Assembly: GCA_020342235.1 (NCBI GenBank) | Contig: CP073214.1 | Span: forward strand, 1,178,001 to 1,242,000 | DNA length: 64,000 nt | Origin: Saccharomycopsis phalli | Taxonomy: Eukaryota > Ascomycota > Saccharomycetes > Ascoideales > Saccharomycopsidaceae | Direction: 5' to 3' | Shown here: positions 9,999 to 16,858 of the stretch, piece after piece | How positions within the stretch are numbered: position 1 is the stretch's first letter | Layout: each line of letters starts with the position of its first letter | The notes under the pieces: model-generated | What the model saw: only the letters and a program-made list of their open reading frames with translations | Databases searched by the model: none | What the model was told of the DNA's origin: nothing | Made by a program: the position numbers and the translations under genes

Positions 9999-10879
9999 TC
10001 GACTCTTTGTGGTGCTTTGTATAGTTTATTAATTGCATGAATGGTTTTCGTTTGTATGGGCATTTTACTCGATACCAACTTGAAGGTTGAACTTGTAATG
10101 AGGCAAGTTTAAAGCCTTTTATGTGAATGTTTTTTGTGATTTCAAGATACATGGTGTGGGATGAAACTGTGAGTTTGGTGAGTTTTGTCGAATCTGGATC
10201 TGTTTAATTCACATTTTTTGTATAATAAATGTACGCACTTGGTGGTTATATAAAGATTTTTGATGTTTGATATTTTTCAACATTGTATATTTTTCAACAT
10301 GCACTTGTATATTCCTTTGCTTTTACACCATTGTTTCATGGGTAGAACCAACTTTGGTTCAATCAGTAATGAGTGATGCTACGAATCCCGTGTCTGATGG
10401 GATTAATTCAGTTTAATTGATGCTTAATTATACAATGAAGCACCGTAGTACCATGGAAATATTGGGCATTGGTAAACCTTCTCGATGCAGCTGACTTTTA
10501 AAGTGAATCTGGTATATTTTTCCCAATTAATTTAATCTTGATACTTCTAACTTTATAATTTATTATATTTTAGTCTATTAATTTACTTGTACATTTCCAT
10601 GACATTGGCATTGTTGAACTCAGCTCAATACTTGCATCAACACCTTCAGCCCAACAGGAAGTCGCACAGAGTAGGGAAGTCGCACAGAATATGGAAGCCC
10701 CACACAGTAGGGAAGCCCCACCGGATCAAAACCGTCAAACAATATCCAGAAACTCGCCCAATCATGCTCAGGGTCCCCTAGAGCCTCTATCCACTTACCC
10801 GGCTTCCCAACACATTTTTGTTGGCTCATCTCATCTCAAGAAAAAATCAAATTTGTCAAATCCACACCAGATTAATACC
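9999..10879. other. Intergenic region, APC2 3' flank and FAS2 promoter
   Basis: About 880 AT-rich bases with no supported gene. The last 200 bases are open in the FAS2 frame, including an ATG at 10691, but they show no homology and contain a short tandem repeat (10657-10730). The length suits a strongly expressed gene's promoter. I could not recognise a specific activator site. Confidence 0.5.
10657..10732. repeat. Imperfect ~19-base tandem repeat upstream of FAS2
   Basis: Four imperfect units of GGAAGTCGCACAGAGTAG-type sequence; the later ones read GGAAGCCCCACACAGTAG. They lie 150-220 bases upstream of the FAS2 start, in the probable 5' leader or promoter. Confidence 0.65.
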
Positions 10880-13800
10880 ATGCGTGCCGAAGTTGAACAA
10901 GAACTTGCACATATCTTAGTCACTGAGTTATTGTCATACCAATTTGCCTCTCCTGTTAGATGGATTGAGACTCAAGATGTCATCTTGAAGGACTACAAAG
11001 CCGAGCGGATCATTGAAATTGGTCCTTCTCCTACCTTGGTGGGAATGGCCAAGCGTACTTTGAGCAAGTACGAGGCGTTTGACCAAGCTTTGAACATCAA
11101 CAGAGAGTTGCTCAGTTACTCCAACGACAAGGACTCGATCTACTATGCTTCTAACGAAGAGGCCAAGCCAAAGGCTTCTTCCAAGGCCAAGAGCGCACCA
11201 GCACCAGCAGCAGCAGCCCCAGCACCAGTTGCGGCCCCTGTTGCTGCACCAGTTGCTGCACCAGCTGCTGCTGGACCAGCCAGTGCTGTTGCTGACGAGG
11301 GTATCAAGGCCGGGTACTTGATTCAGATTCTTGTTGCTCACAAGTTGAAGAAGGCCCCATCTGAGGTGCCAATGAATAAGACCATTAAGGACTTGGTGAA
11401 TGGAAAGTCGACTGTGCAAAACGAAATCTTGGGTGACTTGGGCAAGGAGTTTGGTGCTACCCCAGAGAAGCCAGAAGAGACTCCATTGCAGGAGTTGGCC
11501 GAAGGGTTCCAAGAGTCTTTTAGTGGACAATTGGGCAAGACTTCCTCCACGTTGGTTTCGAAGTTTCTCTCGTCAAAGATGCCTGGTGGATTTGGTGCTA
11601 GTGTCGCCAAGAAGTACTTGGAGACCAAGTTTGGCTTGGGTCCTTTGAGACAAGACGCTGTGTTAATCACTGCAGTGGCCCACGAGCCGGCAAACAGACT
11701 TGCCAGCGAGGCCGAGGCCAAGGCGTTTTTGGACGATGCTGCAGGAAAGTACGCCCAGGCTACTGGAATCACGTTAGGTGCTCCTGCTGCCGCTGCTGCC
11801 GCTCCTGCGTTTGCTGCTGCCGCACCAGTTGGAGGTGGGGCTCCTGCACCTATCCCAGACGAGCCAGTCAAGGCTAAGTTGTTGTTGCACGTATTGGTTG
11901 CCAACAAGTTGAAGAAGCCTCTTGACCAAGTGTCGCTCTCCAAGTCTATCAAGGACTTGGTGAATGGAAAGTCGACCGTTCAGAACGAAATCTTGGGTGA
12001 CTTGGGCAAGGAGTTTGGTGCTACTCCAGAGAAACCAGAAGAGACTCCATTGCAAGAGTTGGCCGAAGGGTTCCAAGAGTCATTCAGCGGCCAGTTGGGT
12101 AAGACCTCCAGTGGGTTGATCAACAAGTTGTTTGCTGCCAAGTTTCCTGGTGGATACAGCATCTCCAAGGCCCGAAGCTACTTGGAGAGCACATATGGCT
12201 TGGGAAGTGGCCGTCAAGATGGTGTTTTCTTGATTGCCTTGTCCAATGAGCCGGCTGGCCGGTTGGCAGGCGAACCAGAGGCCAAGGCTTTCTTGGACGA
12301 GTCTGCCACAAAGTACGCCCAGGAAGCTGGCATTTCGCTCAACCAAGGCGGAGCTGTTGCTGGAGCTGTTGCCGGTGGCCCGGTTATGGACCAGGCAGCT
12401 TTGGATGCCATCACCAAGGACCAAAAGTTCATGGCCAAGCAACACTTGCAAATCCTTGCACGGTACTTGGACATTGACTTGAAGACCGGCGAGAAGGAGT
12501 CGATCAAGCAAAAGAAGTTGAACGAGATCTTGCAATCCGAGTTGGACTTCCTCAGCGAGGAATTGGGCGAGACGTTCATTGAGGGCATCAAGCCATCGTT
12601 CTCGGAGAAGAAGGCCAGAGTGTACGACTCGTCATGGGCATGGGCCAGACAGGACGTCTTGTCAATGTACTACGAGATCATCTTTGGTAACTTGAGTGAC
12701 CGGAACATTGACCGGGACATTATCAGCAAGTGTCTCAGCATCATGAACCGTGCCAATCCTAACTTGGTCAAGTTCATGGAGTACTTCATCAACGTTGTTG
12801 TCACCGAGAAGGCCAAGGACAGCAAGAACAGCAAGAACTACGAGTTGGCCAAGACTTTGGGCGGTGAGTTGATCCGCAACTGTAAGCAGGTGCTCAACTT
12901 GGACCCAGTGTTCAAGGACGTCAGATACCCTACTGGTCCAAAGACTAAGGTCACAGACAAGGGTGAAATCGTTTATGAGGAGGTGCGCCGTGATAACATC
13001 CGCACATTGGAGAGCTACATCAGAAATGTTGCCTTGGGAAGCGACTTGACCAGAAAGTCGGGCACTGCCCCTGCTGGTGACTCTGAGGAGTACTCTGTCA
13101 TTGACGACGACGAAGGCTATGACAGTGCTTCAGACGAAGTGGCATCCTTGTCTTCCTACTCTTCCATCTCTAACCCAGTTTCTAAGACCATCCCATACGA
13201 CAGAAATCCATTTTTGTTTGTTCAAAAGAAGACCAGCACCGGAGAGTGGGTTTTCGACCACACATTGACCAGCAACTACTTGAATTCTTTAGAGTCGATG
13301 GCCGTCAATGGTGCGAACTTCAACAAGACTGTTTTGTTGACTGGTGCAGGTAGAGGCAGTATTGGAAGCGAGATCTTAAAGGGCTTGTTGCAAGGTGGTG
13401 CCACTGTTATTGTCACGACTTCGAGATACTCTTTGAAGGTCACCCAGTTCTTCCAAGACATTTACAGATTGTGTGGAAGCAAGGGCTCGAAGTTGATTTT
13501 GGTGCCTTTCAACCAGGGCTCCCAAAAGGACTGTAAGAACTTGATTGACTTCATCTACGGAAACTTGAACTTGGACTTGGACGCTATTATCCCATTCGGT
13601 GCCATCCCGGAACAAGGTATCACTGCTGCTCTGATTGACTCCAAGTCCGAGTTGGCCCACAGAATTATGTTGACCAACGTTTTCAGACTCTTGGGTGATG
13701 TCAAGCGTGCCAAGGAGGCCCGTGGAATCACCACCAGACCTGCTCAATTATTGCTTCCAATGTCACCAAACCACGGTTTGTTTGGTAACGACGGTTTGTA

Positions 13801-16800
13801 TGCCGAGAGTAAGATCGGTTTGGAGACATTGTTGAACAAATGGGACAGTGAGGACTGGAGCAGCTACATTACTATCTGTGGTGCAGTCATTGGCTGGACC
13901 AGAGGTACGGGTTTGATGGCAGTTTCCAACATTGTTGCCGAGAAGATCGAGTCTTATGGTGTCCGGACATTCAGTCAGCAGGAAATGGCATTCAACTTGT
14001 TAGGTTTATTAACCGACACCATCAGCATCAAGTGTGAGGAGTTCTCGTTGAAGGTTGACTTGAATGGTGGATTTGAGAAGTTGGCCAACTTGAAGGAGAT
14101 CAACATCAACAGCAGAGAGAAGTTGATGGAGGAGTCTGCCGTCAAGAGACAGGTTGCCATTGAGACTGCGTTGGATCACAAGTCTGTCTATGGTACTGAT
14201 GCCGAGTACAAGAAGCGAACCATTAACCCAAGAGCCAACGACAAGTATCTGTTCCCAGGTTTGAAGTCGTATGAGGAGATCAAGAAGTTGTCCCCAGATA
14301 TTGAAGGGTTGGTCAACTTGAAGAACGTCATTGTGGTAACTGGTTTTGGTGAGGTTAATCCACACGGAAGTGCCGAGACCAGATGGGAGATTGAGTCTAC
14401 TGGTGAATTCTCCTTGGAGGGTTGTATTTACTTGGCCAGTATCATGGGGTACATCAAGTTTGACTCCAAAAACAGTTGCTGGGTTGACATCAAAACTAAC
14501 AAGCCTGTTGAGGAGAGTTCTGTCAAGAAGTTGTATGAGGAGACTATCTTGGAACACACTGGTATTAGATTGATTGAGCCAGAATTGTTTGATGGCTATG
14601 ATCCAGCCAACAAGCAATTCATCCAGGAGGTTATCTTGCAGCACGACTTGGAGGCCTTTGAAGCCTCTGAGGAGGACGCTTTGCACTTTAAGCAAGAGCA
14701 CAAGGAGAACTGTGAGATCTACCCATTGGGCGAATCAGGTGAGTATAGTGTGCTCATGAAGCAGGGTGCCAAATTGTACATTCCAAAGGCCCTTAAATTC
14801 GACCGATTGGTTGCTGGTCAAATTCCAACTGGATGGGATGCCAAGAAGTACGGTATCTCACAGGATATTGTTGACCAGGTTGACCCTATCACTCTTTACA
14901 ACTTGGTCTCCACCATCAGTGCATTCAGCAAGTCTGGTATCAAGGATCCTTATGAGTTGTACAAGTACATCCACGTCTCGGAGATTGGTATCTGTACCGG
15001 ATCTGGTATGGGAGGTGTCAGTGCTCTCAGAGGAATGTTCAAGGACCGGTTCATGGAACAACCTGTGCAGAATGATATCTTGCAAGAGTCTTTCATCAAC
15101 ACCATGTCTGCTTGGGTCAATATGTTGCTCTTGTCTGGCTCGGGTCCTATCAAAACCCCTGTTGGAGCTTGTGCCACCAGTATTGAGTCTGTTGATGTAG
15201 GTGTCGAGACTATTCTCAGTGGTAAGGCTAAGATCTGTTTGGTTGGTGGGTACGATGATTTCCAAGAGGAAGGATCATACGAATTCGCAAACATGAAGGC
15301 TACTAGTGACAGCATTGAGGAGTTGGCTGCTGGACGTACTCCTTCTGAGATGTCCAGACCATGTACTTCTACCAGAAACGGTTTCATGGAGTCCCAAGGT
15401 GCTGGTGTGCAAATAATCATGACTGCTGAGTTGGCCTTACAAATGGGATTGCCAATCTACGGTATTGTCGGTATGGCTGCCACTGCTTCTGACAAGATTG
15501 GCAAGTCTGTTCCTGCTCCAGGACAGGGATTGTTGACTGTTGCTAAAGAGAGCCATGTTGGAAACAGCAGCAGCTTGATCTTGAACCCAAGTTACAGAAA
15601 GCGCCAATTGAACAGACGTGTCAAGGCCATTTCCCAGACCTTGGAGGAGGAGATTGAGGAAATCACCTTGTCTTCCGAAGAGGACAAGGAGGGCTTGATT
15701 GAGGAGGCCAAGAAGTTGAGTGAGACTCAGATCAAGGAGGCCCAAAGATTCTTTGGTAACGATTTCTTCAAGGAGGACCCACGTATCTCTCCAATCAGAG
15801 GTTCCTTGGCGGTATTTGGCTTGTCTGTTGATGATGTCTCTGTTGCCTCCTTCCACGGTACCTCGACCAAGGCCAACGATAAGAACGAGAGTGACGTCAT
15901 TCACAACATTCTTAAGCACTTGGGCAGAAGCGAGGGTAATCCAATCTTCTCCATCTTCCAGAAATACCTCACTGGTCATCCAAAGGGTGCCGCTGGTGCC
16001 TGGATGTTGGATGGTTTGATCCAGTCCTTGAACTCTGGTATTGTCCCAGGAAACAGAAACTTGGACAACTGTGCCTCGGAGTTGGAACAGTTCTCCAATA
16101 TCTTGTACACTAGTGAAACCATCAAGACCGATGGATTGAAGGCTGGTTTTGTCACCTCCTTTGGATTTGGTCAAAAGGGTGGTTTTGCCTTGGTCATTCA
16201 CCCAGACTACTTGTATGCTGCCTTGAGTGAGAAGCAGTATGTCGAGTATGTTGACAAGGTCCTGACTAGAGAGAGACAGGCATACTCAAACTACCACGAG
16301 TCGTTGGTCAACAACAGCTTGTTTGAGGAGAAGTCCCATGCCCCATACACTGCTGAGATTGAGCAGAAGGTGTACTTGGACCCATTGATCCGAGTCACCA
16401 AGGGCAAGGAAGGATTGGAGTACAACAAGAAGGATATCCAAGTAAATGGATATTTGCCAGAGAATACCAGTGACACCTTGAAACTGTTAACCTCGGGACA
16501 AAAGAATGTCGGTGTTGATGTTGAGCAGCTTGGTTCGATCAACATCACCAACGAGACTTTCCTTGAGAGAAACTTCACCCCAGAAGAGATTAAGTACTGT
16601 CAACTGAGCAGTTCTCCACAGAGCTCGTTCACTGGTACTTGGTCTGCCAAGGAGGCTGTGTTCAAATCCTTGCAGGTTACTTCATTGGGCGGAGGAGCTC
16701 CATTGAAGGATATTGAGATTGTTCGTGAGAATGGAATTCCAAAGGTCAAGTTGGCTGGTGTTGCCAAGACCAAGGCTGACGAAAAGGGCATTAAGAATGT

Positions 16801-16858
16801 CAAGGTCAGTATCAGCCATGACGATGTTCAAGCCGTTGCAGTTGCCATTGCTGAGTAA
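10880..16858 (+). CDS. FAS2: Fatty acid synthase alpha subunit with two tandem ACP domains
   Basis: 1992 residues, against 1887 in baker's yeast. The cytosolic type I synthase alpha chain carries the ACP, ketoreductase, ketosynthase and phosphopantetheine-transferase activities. The start MRAEVEQELAHIL matches Fas2 exactly in position. Order: malonyl/palmitoyl-transferase tail (1-110), Ala/Pro linker, ACP1 (about 139-300, carrier Ser177 in NGKS), Ala-rich linker, ACP2 (about 327-488, Ser365), dimer/structural region. The ketoreductase follows (LLTGAGRGSIGSE), then the ketosynthase (GACATS, Cys1431) and the C-terminal transferase (VGVDVE..WSAKEAVFKSL). ACP duplication is not found in the standard yeast enzyme. 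A structural stretch near 700-760 is about 60 residues shorter than in baker's yeast. CTG codons 918, 1124, 1795 and 1909 sit at polar positions. Confidence 0.97.
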   Translation: MRAEVEQELAHILVTELLSYQFASPVRWIETQDVILKDYKAERIIEIGPSPTLVGMAKRTLSKYEAFDQALNINRELLSYSNDKDSIYYASNEEAKPKASSKAKSAPAPAAAAPAPVAAPVAAPVAAPAAAGPASAVADEGIKAGYLIQILVAHKLKKAPSEVPMNKTIKDLVNGKSTVQNEILGDLGKEFGATPEKPEETPLQELAEGFQESFSGQLGKTSSTLVSKFLSSKMPGGFGASVAKKYLETKFGLGPLRQDAVLITAVAHEPANRLASEAEAKAFLDDAAGKYAQATGITLGAPAAAAAAPAFAAAAPVGGGAPAPIPDEPVKAKLLLHVLVANKLKKPLDQVSLSKSIKDLVNGKSTVQNEILGDLGKEFGATPEKPEETPLQELAEGFQESFSGQLGKTSSGLINKLFAAKFPGGYSISKARSYLESTYGLGSGRQDGVFLIALSNEPAGRLAGEPEAKAFLDESATKYAQEAGISLNQGGAVAGAVAGGPVMDQAALDAITKDQKFMAKQHLQILARYLDIDLKTGEKESIKQKKLNEILQSELDFLSEELGETFIEGIKPSFSEKKARVYDSSWAWARQDVLSMYYEIIFGNLSDRNIDRDIISKCLSIMNRANPNLVKFMEYFINVVVTEKAKDSKNSKNYELAKTLGGELIRNCKQVLNLDPVFKDVRYPTGPKTKVTDKGEIVYEEVRRDNIRTLESYIRNVALGSDLTRKSGTAPAGDSEEYSVIDDDEGYDSASDEVASLSSYSSISNPVSKTIPYDRNPFLFVQKKTSTGEWVFDHTLTSNYLNSLESMAVNGANFNKTVLLTGAGRGSIGSEILKGLLQGGATVIVTTSRYSLKVTQFFQDIYRLCGSKGSKLILVPFNQGSQKDCKNLIDFIYGNLNLDLDAIIPFGAIPEQGITAALIDSKSELAHRIMLTNVFRLLGDVKRAKEARGITTRPAQLLLPMSPNHGLFGNDGLYAESKIGLETLLNKWDSEDWSSYITICGAVIGWTRGTGLMAVSNIVAEKIESYGVRTFSQQEMAFNLLGLLTDTISIKCEEFSLKVDLNGGFEKLANLKEININSREKLMEESAVKRQVAIETALDHKSVYGTDAEYKKRTINPRANDKYLFPGLKSYEEIKKLSPDIEGLVNLKNVIVVTGFGEVNPHGSAETRWEIESTGEFSLEGCIYLASIMGYIKFDSKNSCWVDIKTNKPVEESSVKKLYEETILEHTGIRLIEPELFDGYDPANKQFIQEVILQHDLEAFEASEEDALHFKQEHKENCEIYPLGESGEYSVLMKQGAKLYIPKALKFDRLVAGQIPTGWDAKKYGISQDIVDQVDPITLYNLVSTISAFSKSGIKDPYELYKYIHVSEIGICTGSGMGGVSALRGMFKDRFMEQPVQNDILQESFINTMSAWVNMLLLSGSGPIKTPVGACATSIESVDVGVETILSGKAKICLVGGYDDFQEEGSYEFANMKATSDSIEELAAGRTPSEMSRPCTSTRNGFMESQGAGVQIIMTAELALQMGLPIYGIVGMAATASDKIGKSVPAPGQGLLTVAKESHVGNSSSLILNPSYRKRQLNRRVKAISQTLEEEIEEITLSSEEDKEGLIEEAKKLSETQIKEAQRFFGNDFFKEDPRISPIRGSLAVFGLSVDDVSVASFHGTSTKANDKNESDVIHNILKHLGRSEGNPIFSIFQKYLTGHPKGAAGAWMLDGLIQSLNSGIVPGNRNLDNCASELEQFSNILYTSETIKTDGLKAGFVTSFGFGQKGGFALVIHPDYLYAALSEKQYVEYVDKVLTRERQAYSNYHESLVNNSLFEEKSHAPYTAEIEQKVYLDPLIRVTKGKEGLEYNKKDIQVNGYLPENTSDTLKLLTSGQKNVGVDVEQLGSINITNETFLERNFTPEEIKYCQLSSSPQSSFTGTWSAKEAVFKSLQVTSLGGGAPLKDIEIVRENGIPKVKLAGVAKTKADEKGIKNVKVSISHDDVQAVAVAIAE
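11294..11779 (+). repeat. First ACP-domain copy inside FAS2
   Basis: Encodes residues about 139-300 of the alpha subunit. The 4'-phosphopantetheine attachment site is Ser177 in VNGKSTVQ, the position equivalent to Ser180 of baker's yeast. The outer helices diverge from copy 2. The core from KDLVNGKS to LGKTSS (54 residues) is identical in protein sequence to copy 2. Confidence 0.92.
11858..12343 (+). repeat. Second ACP-domain copy inside FAS2
   Basis: Encodes residues about 327-488, with attachment Ser365 placed 188 codons after Ser177. Its first helix (DEPVKAKLLLHVLVANKLKK) is closer to the baker's yeast ACP than copy 1 is. The 162-base core differs from copy 1 at 14 of 54 codons, all synonymously. 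Confidence 0.92.

What the first reader, a model, noticed from the sequence alone, without database searches (positions are those of the whole stretch)
11294..12343. FAS2 encodes two tandem acyl carrier protein domains
The alpha subunit carries two complete ACP domains, with phosphopantetheine sites Ser177 and Ser365 (188 codons apart), joined by Ala/Pro-rich linkers. The standard yeast fatty acid synthase has one ACP per alpha chain. Two ACPs per alpha chain are known in the basidiomycete Rhodosporidium toruloides. Finding it in an ascomycete with a baker's-yeast-like gene suggests an independent duplication. A dodecamer would then hold twelve ACPs instead of six, which could change flux, chain length or accessory acylation.
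Basis: partly seen in the sequence, partly recalled or inferred. Interest (0 to 1): 0.88.

Follow-up and report, generated by a model that had tools for sequence, protein, structure and literature searches.

The report
Yeast fatty-acid synthase with doubled carrier
A budding yeast related to Saccharomycopsis builds its fatty-acid synthase with two carrier domains per chain instead of one; the doubling is real and shared with its sampled relatives, and it looks like another case of a known but little-studied arrangement rather than a new kind of machine.

Summary
FAS2 (10880-16858, +) carries two full-length fungal ACP domains (PF18325) with GKST serines at residues 177 and 365; the genome search found no other such domain. 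It is not an assembly artefact: outside one tract the copies differ at 40% of bases, and the two closest relatives have the same pair. The organism is not in the Candida CTG clade: its FAS2 groups with Saccharomycopsis crataegensis, then Ascoidea (CUG-Ser2 clade), and its CTG codons face Ser in 6 of 10 cells and Leu in none. The duplication predates the three sampled Saccharomycopsis-like species and is separate from those in Rhodotorula-type yeasts and in one Pichia-clade yeast. Two further details: only in this species, a 55-residue tract (serine site to helix IV) is identical in both copies, consistent with gene conversion; and the three species lack the segment that by position is DM2, a module whose deletion costs S. 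cerevisiae FAS about two thirds of its activity. Most likely both ACPs work and raise carrier concentration. Duplicated ACPs in certain fungal FAS are in print: a new member of a known kind.

The parts
10880..16858 (+). FAS2, fatty acid synthase alpha subunit, 1992 aa, two ACPs
   Evidence: Open frame, Pfam domains, homologues over the full length
10880..11149 (+). MPT C-terminal part, residues 1-90 (boundary approximate)
   Evidence: Alignment with yeast FAS2 proteins; 84-92% identical among the three relatives
11150..11293 (+). Ala/Pro-rich tether 1, residues 91-138
   Evidence: Sequence and alignment
11294..11782 (+). ACP1, residues 139-301, Ser177 at nt 11408-11410
   Evidence: PF18325 and a home-made ACP HMM
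11384..11548 (+). Homogenised tract, copy 1, residues 169-223
   Evidence: 55 identical residues, 89.7% DNA identity with copy 2
11783..11857 (+). Inter-ACP linker, 25 residues, Ala/Pro/Gly-rich
11858..12349 (+). ACP2, residues 327-490, Ser365 at nt 11972-11974
   Evidence: PF18325 and a home-made ACP HMM
11948..12112 (+). Homogenised tract, copy 2, residues 357-411
12350..12394 (+). C-terminal tether, residues 491-505 (end approximate)
   Evidence: Alignment
12413..13042 (+). FAS_I_H helical domain, residues 512-721
   Evidence: PF18314
13058..13129 (+). Site of the missing segment that by position is DM2, replaced by a short acidic stretch
   Evidence: Alignment; no HMM match above noise
13325..13903 (+). 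Ketoreductase region, residues 816-1008
   Evidence: PF00106, 24.3 bits, below its cut-off of 26.6
14813..16063 (+). Ketoacyl synthase region, best Pfam stretches at residues 1312-1517 and 1639-1728
   Evidence: PF00109 and PF02801
16508..16738 (+). Phosphopantetheine transferase domain, residues 1877-1953
   Evidence: PF01648

Best explanation
This is the alpha subunit (FAS2) of an Ascomycota-type fungal fatty acid synthase in a Saccharomycopsis-like yeast, in which one ACP plus one linker was duplicated head to tail. Shown: both copies are full length, keep the GKST serine and the GDLGKEFG helix II motif, and are about as well conserved between species as the catalytic domains. Inferred: the chain's own PPT domain loads both serines; both ACPs sit in series on one chain tethered at both ends inside the barrel chamber (six per chamber, twelve per barrel); they act in parallel and raise the local carrier concentration rather than changing product length. 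Inferred: gene conversion or an equivalent exchange made the functional tract, from the serine site through helix IV, identical in this species, while the rest of the copies drifted apart. The same lineage lacks the segment that by position is DM2.
For: Two full-length PF18325 matches and none found elsewhere in the genome. The same pair in S. crataegensis P0001 and an unnamed SRA assembly P0002. ACP1s group with ACP1s (98/93) and ACP2s with ACP2s (100/100). Between the three species ACP1 is 75-84% and ACP2 76-84% identical, against KS 81-86%, helical domain 78-85% and PPT 71-80%, so neither copy looks to be decaying. GDLGKEFG, the GX2GX3G motif needed for acyl-chain sequestration in yeast ACP (PMC8683515, abstract and passages), is intact in both. 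The identical run of 55 residues is reached in 0 of 100,000 shuffles; the longest run in P0001 is 13 and in P0002 12. In PUFA synthases ACP number raises yield without changing the product profile (PMC5067506, abstract and passages).
Against: No biochemical data: modification of both serines, place in the chamber and flux are unmeasured. The PUFA synthase comparison concerns another kind of megasynthase. Within a species the copies are 61-67% identical, about as far apart as each is from the S. cerevisiae ACP (64-71%), which leaves room for specialisation. The shuffle test treats residues as independent, and eight single-ACP species also conserve this core more than the rest (mean 0.82 against 0.69), so part of the identity is ordinary selection. 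Yeast Thr216, important for C12 sequestration, is Ser in both copies, as in C. albicans. No structure model was obtained.
Confidence: 0.8

Rival explanations
1. Division of labour: both ACPs are active but specialised, for example by reaching different active sites from their different tether positions or by handling different steps.
For: The copies have stayed distinct since before the three species split (98/93 and 100/100) and are only 61-67% identical within a species.
Against: The tract from the serine through helix IV is identical in the window, which argues against different docking faces there; no functional data.
Confidence: 0.15
2. Compensation: the second ACP was kept because it offsets a loss of synthase activity caused by the missing DM2 segment, or the other way round.
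For: Both changes are shared by all 3 sampled species and absent from Ascoidea. Deleting DM2 in S. cerevisiae lowers activity from 2953 to 1069 mU/mg with assembly intact (PMC6972935, passages).
Against: P0022 has two ACPs with the segment; P0047 and P0032 have one ACP and no significant match. The order of the two events is unknown, and other long-branch changes in this lineage are many (stem 0.63).
Confidence: 0.12
3. Passenger: only one ACP is loaded and used; the other is a spacer.
For: In principle one ACP suffices, as in single-ACP yeasts.
Against: Both serines and both full folds are kept in 3 of 3 species, with similar conservation.
Confidence: 0.07
4. Assembly or annotation artefact: the second copy is not in the genome.
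For: A nearly identical tract of 165 bases exists between the copies.
Against: The flanks of the copies are 60% identical at the DNA level and two separately assembled relatives have orthologous copies.
Confidence: 0.01

Closest known systems
FAS2 of Saccharomycopsis crataegensis (P0001, 1995 aa)
   Same: Two ACPs, copy by copy orthologous, similar linkers, same missing segment, 77% identity over the whole length
   Different: Its two ACP cores are 79% identical over 52 columns, against 98% in the window
Rhodotorula (Rhodosporidium) toruloides FAS alpha (P0134) and similar basidiomycete yeasts
   Same: Two full ACPs in tandem, 27-residue Ala/Pro/Gly linker, period 191; two ACPs in print (PMC12014800, passage)
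   Different: Another subunit split (2928 aa with beta-type domains); separate duplication, its ACPs with those of three relatives form their own clade (100/100); DM2 segment weakly matched
Unnamed Pichia-clade FAS2 (P0022, 26 member sequences)
   Same: Ascomycota-type alpha with two ACPs and a 25-residue linker
   Different: Copies 90% identical and sister to each other (100/96): a separate, younger duplication; DM2 segment present
Saccharomyces cerevisiae FAS2 (P0003; PDB 2uv8)
   Same: Same domains in the same order; 58% identity over the best-aligned 84% of the query
   Different: One ACP; DM2 segment present
PUFA synthases with tandem ACPs (Schizochytrium OrfA, Shewanella PfaA)
   Same: Several ACPs in series on one chain; their number controls yield (PMC5067506)
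   Different: Another kind of megasynthase with more ACPs (nine and four natively)

Membership tests
Ascomycota-type fungal FAS alpha subunit | C-terminal part of MPT, then ACP, helical domain, KR, KS and PPT on one chain | tested here: met
   Pfam ACP, FAS_I_H, KS and PPT in order over their cut-offs, KR below its cut-off; matches yeast FAS alpha chains
Ascomycota-type fungal FAS alpha subunit | A separate beta-subunit gene | tested here: met
   One PF17951 match in the genome, in a 2045-aa frame on contig C1, FAS2 being on C3; its other domains were not scanned
Ascomycota-type fungal FAS alpha subunit | One ACP per alpha chain (usual state) | tested here: not met
   Two ACPs; exceptions are already in print
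Ascomycota-type fungal FAS alpha subunit | DM2 segment between the helical domain and KR | tested here: not met
   No match in the window, P0001 or P0002. In all 20 of 225 proteins have none at 1e-3, of which several are fragments and 5 just miss it. DM2 is not uniform across the family (PMC6972935, passage)
Fungal FAS with duplicated ACPs | Two complete fungal-type ACPs in tandem on one chain | tested here: met
Fungal FAS with duplicated ACPs | Both ACPs phosphopantetheinylated and in use | not testable with these tools
   Serine and helix II motif intact in both; needs mass spectrometry
   Groups with P0001 and P0002 (100), then Ascoidea (100), apart from the Ser1 rows
CUG-Ser2 clade (Ascoidea, Saccharomycopsis) | Position in the tree and CUG read as Ser | tested here: met
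   Tree; the five CTG codons face Ser in 6 of 10 cells of P0001 and P0002, Leu in 0 of 10. One gene only; the tRNA-Ser(CAG) gene was not looked for

The most novel reading that the evidence does not exclude
In the Saccharomycopsis lineage the fatty acid synthase was rebuilt in two linked steps, loss of the barrel-stabilising DM2 and gain of a second ACP, now partly specialised, whose acyl-carrying tract is kept in step by gene conversion. That would be a natural experiment on how carrier number trades off against barrel rigidity in a closed-chamber megasynthase.
Probability: 0.15. Interest if true: 0.65.

Novelty: new member of a known kind. Interest (0 to 1): 0.4.

Why it matters
Fungal FAS is a reference system for substrate shuttling in a closed chamber, and whether the number of carriers limits its rate is open. 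An Ascomycota-type enzyme with a natural second ACP, 58% identical to the S. cerevisiae chain over most of its length, could be tested in FAS-null yeast, more directly than the differently split Rhodotorula enzyme. Repeated origin (Saccharomycopsis, a Pichia-clade yeast, basidiomycete yeasts, and hits labelled chytrid, oomycete and diplonemid) suggests that tandem ACPs are useful or easily tolerated.

Tried and rejected
Assembly duplication: rejected; the flanks of the copies are 60% identical and relatives share the pair. CTG-clade placement: rejected. A general link between DM2 loss and a second ACP: not supported, since P0022 has two ACPs with the segment, while P0047 and P0032 have one ACP without a significant match. 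Order of the duplication and the Ascoidea split: unresolved; the tree puts Ascoidea's single ACP with the ACP1s (97/89), but a tree holding the six Saccharomycopsis-type ACPs together is not rejected (p-AU 0.331). Species name: not settled; S. schoenii is unlikely, as its genome is 33.9% GC (PMC13148404, abstract and passages) against 45.0% here (42-49% in each of eight 8-kb bins). Papers on Saccharomycopsis with 'FAS2': the top one concerns FLO/ALS-like adhesins and holds no 'fatty acid'. Two regular-expression comparisons of the DM2 region failed for many proteins and were replaced by an alignment and an HMM; 14 of the 225 proteins scanned with that HMM were its own seeds. The ACP HMM used for the counts was seeded with 7 of the fetched proteins. 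A structure model was asked for seven times and never obtained.

Full report
WHAT IS THERE. The window lies at G000:C3:1178001-1242000 of a genome held as 14,148,124 bases in 8 contigs. FAS2 is one uninterrupted frame; homologues place the start at MRAEVEQ, nt 10880, giving 1992 residues. Pfam finds the fungal ACP twice, then the helical domain, KS and PPT; the reductase domain scores 24.3 bits, below its cut-off of 26.6. The genome search with PF18325 gives 2 matches, 233.3 and 227.1 bits, both in this frame. The serines are Ser177 (nt 11408) and Ser365 (nt 11972), 188 codons apart.

IT IS NOT AN ARTEFACT. Outside one tract the copies are 60.0% (left) and 60.3% (right) identical at the DNA level. 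The two best-scoring proteins in the protein search (120 listed of 2328 hits, 7999 candidates scored), Saccharomycopsis crataegensis P0001 (77%, 1995 aa) and an unnamed SRA assembly P0002 (74%, 2000 aa), carry the same two ACPs. Copy by copy they are orthologous: ACP1 with ACP1 75-84%, ACP2 with ACP2 76-84%, cross comparisons between species 61-65%.

WHOSE IT IS. In a tree of 45 hand-chosen FAS2 proteins built from the part after the last ACP, the window groups with P0001 and P0002 (support 100), then with Ascoidea rubescens (100), apart from the Candida-type rows. NCBI files S. crataegensis under Ascoideales, Saccharomycopsidaceae. The five CTG codons face Ser in 6 of 10 cells of the two relatives, Gln in 2, Ala in 1, Asn in 1 and Leu in none, whereas TTG faces Leu in 257 cells, with 12 Met the next most frequent. 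That fits the CUG-Ser2 clade, which contains only Ascoidea and Saccharomycopsis (PMC5951914, passages). So 'CTG clade' is wrong, and a standard-code reading probably gives five wrong residues, none in the ACPs. S. schoenii is an unlikely source (33.9% GC; window 45.0%). The species itself is not settled.

HOW OLD. Ascoidea has one ACP. The ACP1s of the three Saccharomycopsis-like species form a clade (98/93), as do their ACP2s (100/100), so the duplication predates these species. The tree draws Ascoidea's single ACP with the ACP1s (97/89), which would mean duplication before that split and a later loss; but holding the six ACPs together costs 3.50 log-likelihood units (p-AU 0.331), so the order is open.

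HOW COMMON. Among 225 proteins (the window's own and those listed by three searches, two of which were aimed at the double region and so enrich for it) 24 have two ACPs. They are the window and two relatives; the unnamed Pichia-clade P0022; nine proteins named after Rhodotorula, Sporobolomyces, Rhodosporidiobolus or Phenoliferia (Microbotryomycetes, a class name I recall); hits labelled Entophlyctis luteolus, Phytophthora cactorum, Diplonema papillatum and Deltaproteobacteria; and seven without an organism name. P0022's ACPs are 90% identical and sister to each other (100/96), inside relatives with one ACP; the ACPs of the four Microbotryomycetes put in the tree form one clade (100/100). With the Saccharomycopsis pair this means at least three separate duplications in Dikarya, unless exchange between copies has hidden older ones. 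The inter-ACP linker is 23-32 residues in 23 of 24 and 44 in P0191, so the unit duplicated looks like one ACP plus one tether. My serine pattern matched both copies in 19 of 24; the other five (P0147, P0164, P0191, P0201, P0209) were not examined further.

A HOMOGENISED TRACT. In the window 55 consecutive residues (169-223 and 357-411) are identical, with 89.7% DNA identity and 15 codon differences, all synonymous; 0 of 100,000 shuffles of the matched positions give such a run. The longest run in P0001 is 13 and in P0002 12. Eight single-ACP species compared in pairs also conserve this core more than the rest (mean 0.82 against 0.69, highest pair 0.92), so selection explains part of it but hardly 0.98 beside 0.53 outside. 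Gene conversion or an equivalent exchange is the best reading; with no DNA from relatives the donor copy could not be told. By my alignment the tract is about residues 172-226 of the S. cerevisiae protein: Ser180, helix II with the GX2GX3G motif, and helices III-IV; the structural subdomain begins at 220 (PMC8683515, abstract and passages). The part that carries the acyl chain was made the same while the structural subdomain drifted.

A SECOND LINEAGE-SPECIFIC CHANGE. Between the helical domain and KR, a segment conserved in most other yeasts and filamentous fungi compared, probably helical by my reading, is missing in the three Saccharomycopsis-like proteins and replaced by a short acidic stretch. 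From GPKT to the EVASL/EIASL motif they have 72-75 residues, four other yeasts 111-124. An HMM of the segment gives no match at 1e-3 in 20 of 225 proteins; several of these are fragments and 5 just miss the limit. Its place between DM1 and KR makes it DM2 (inferred). Deleting DM2 from yeast FAS leaves assembly intact but lowers activity from 2953 to 1069 mU/mg and lowers stability (PMC6972935, passages). The two changes need not be linked: P0022 has two ACPs with the segment, and P0047 (Wickerhamiella sorbophila) and P0032 have one ACP without a significant match.

MECHANISM. Shown: two intact, conserved ACPs in series with flexible-looking tethers. Inferred: both are loaded by the chain's PPT, both face the chamber, and together they raise carrier concentration. 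By analogy: in PUFA synthases yield follows ACP number with unchanged product profile (PMC5067506, abstract and passages), and a benefit of multiple ACPs was suggested for fungal FAS (PMC5496573, passage). Division of labour and compensation for the DM2 loss remain possible.

NOVELTY. [quoted passage not shown] R. toruloides is a named case (PMC12014800, passage). Searches for Saccharomycopsis with fatty acid synthase and acyl carrier protein, and with FAS2, listed 4 and 8 papers; no title or abstract start shown describes a double ACP, and only one of them was opened (PMC6277891, passages), where FAS means adhesins. Wider searches on tandem or double ACPs likewise listed none for an ascomycete yeast, judged by titles and abstract starts. 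The library lacks most subscription papers, including the R. toruloides cryo-EM paper, so earlier mention is possible. I file it as a new member of a known kind, with two details of its own.

Noticed in passing
P0022 (Pichia-clade FAS2, 2008 aa): An unnamed Pichia-clade yeast has a much younger tandem ACP (copies 90% identical), a second, independent case in ascomycete yeasts.
   Followed up: partly
P0199, P0201, P0142, P0209: Fungal-type FAS proteins labelled Entophlyctis luteolus, Phytophthora cactorum, Diplonema papillatum, and one eukprot transcript also carry two ACPs; the labels were not checked and contamination is not excluded.
   Followed up: no
P0047 (Wickerhamiella sorbophila) and P0032 (unnamed): The DM2 segment gives no significant match in these one-ACP enzymes either, so it may have been lost more than once.
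   Followed up: partly
window 10657-10726: About four 18-base tandem units lie upstream of the FAS2 start; the first in-frame ATG (10691), which I do not take as the start, is inside them.
   Followed up: no
window 757-58938: Ten further open frames scanned with Pfam look like ordinary yeast genes: APC2 cullin, CPSF100-like, ATG17-like, DEAD helicase, DnaJ, MUS81-like, sugar transporter, mitochondrial carrier, fungal transcription factor, and a T5orf172/MUG113 protein.
   Followed up: partly
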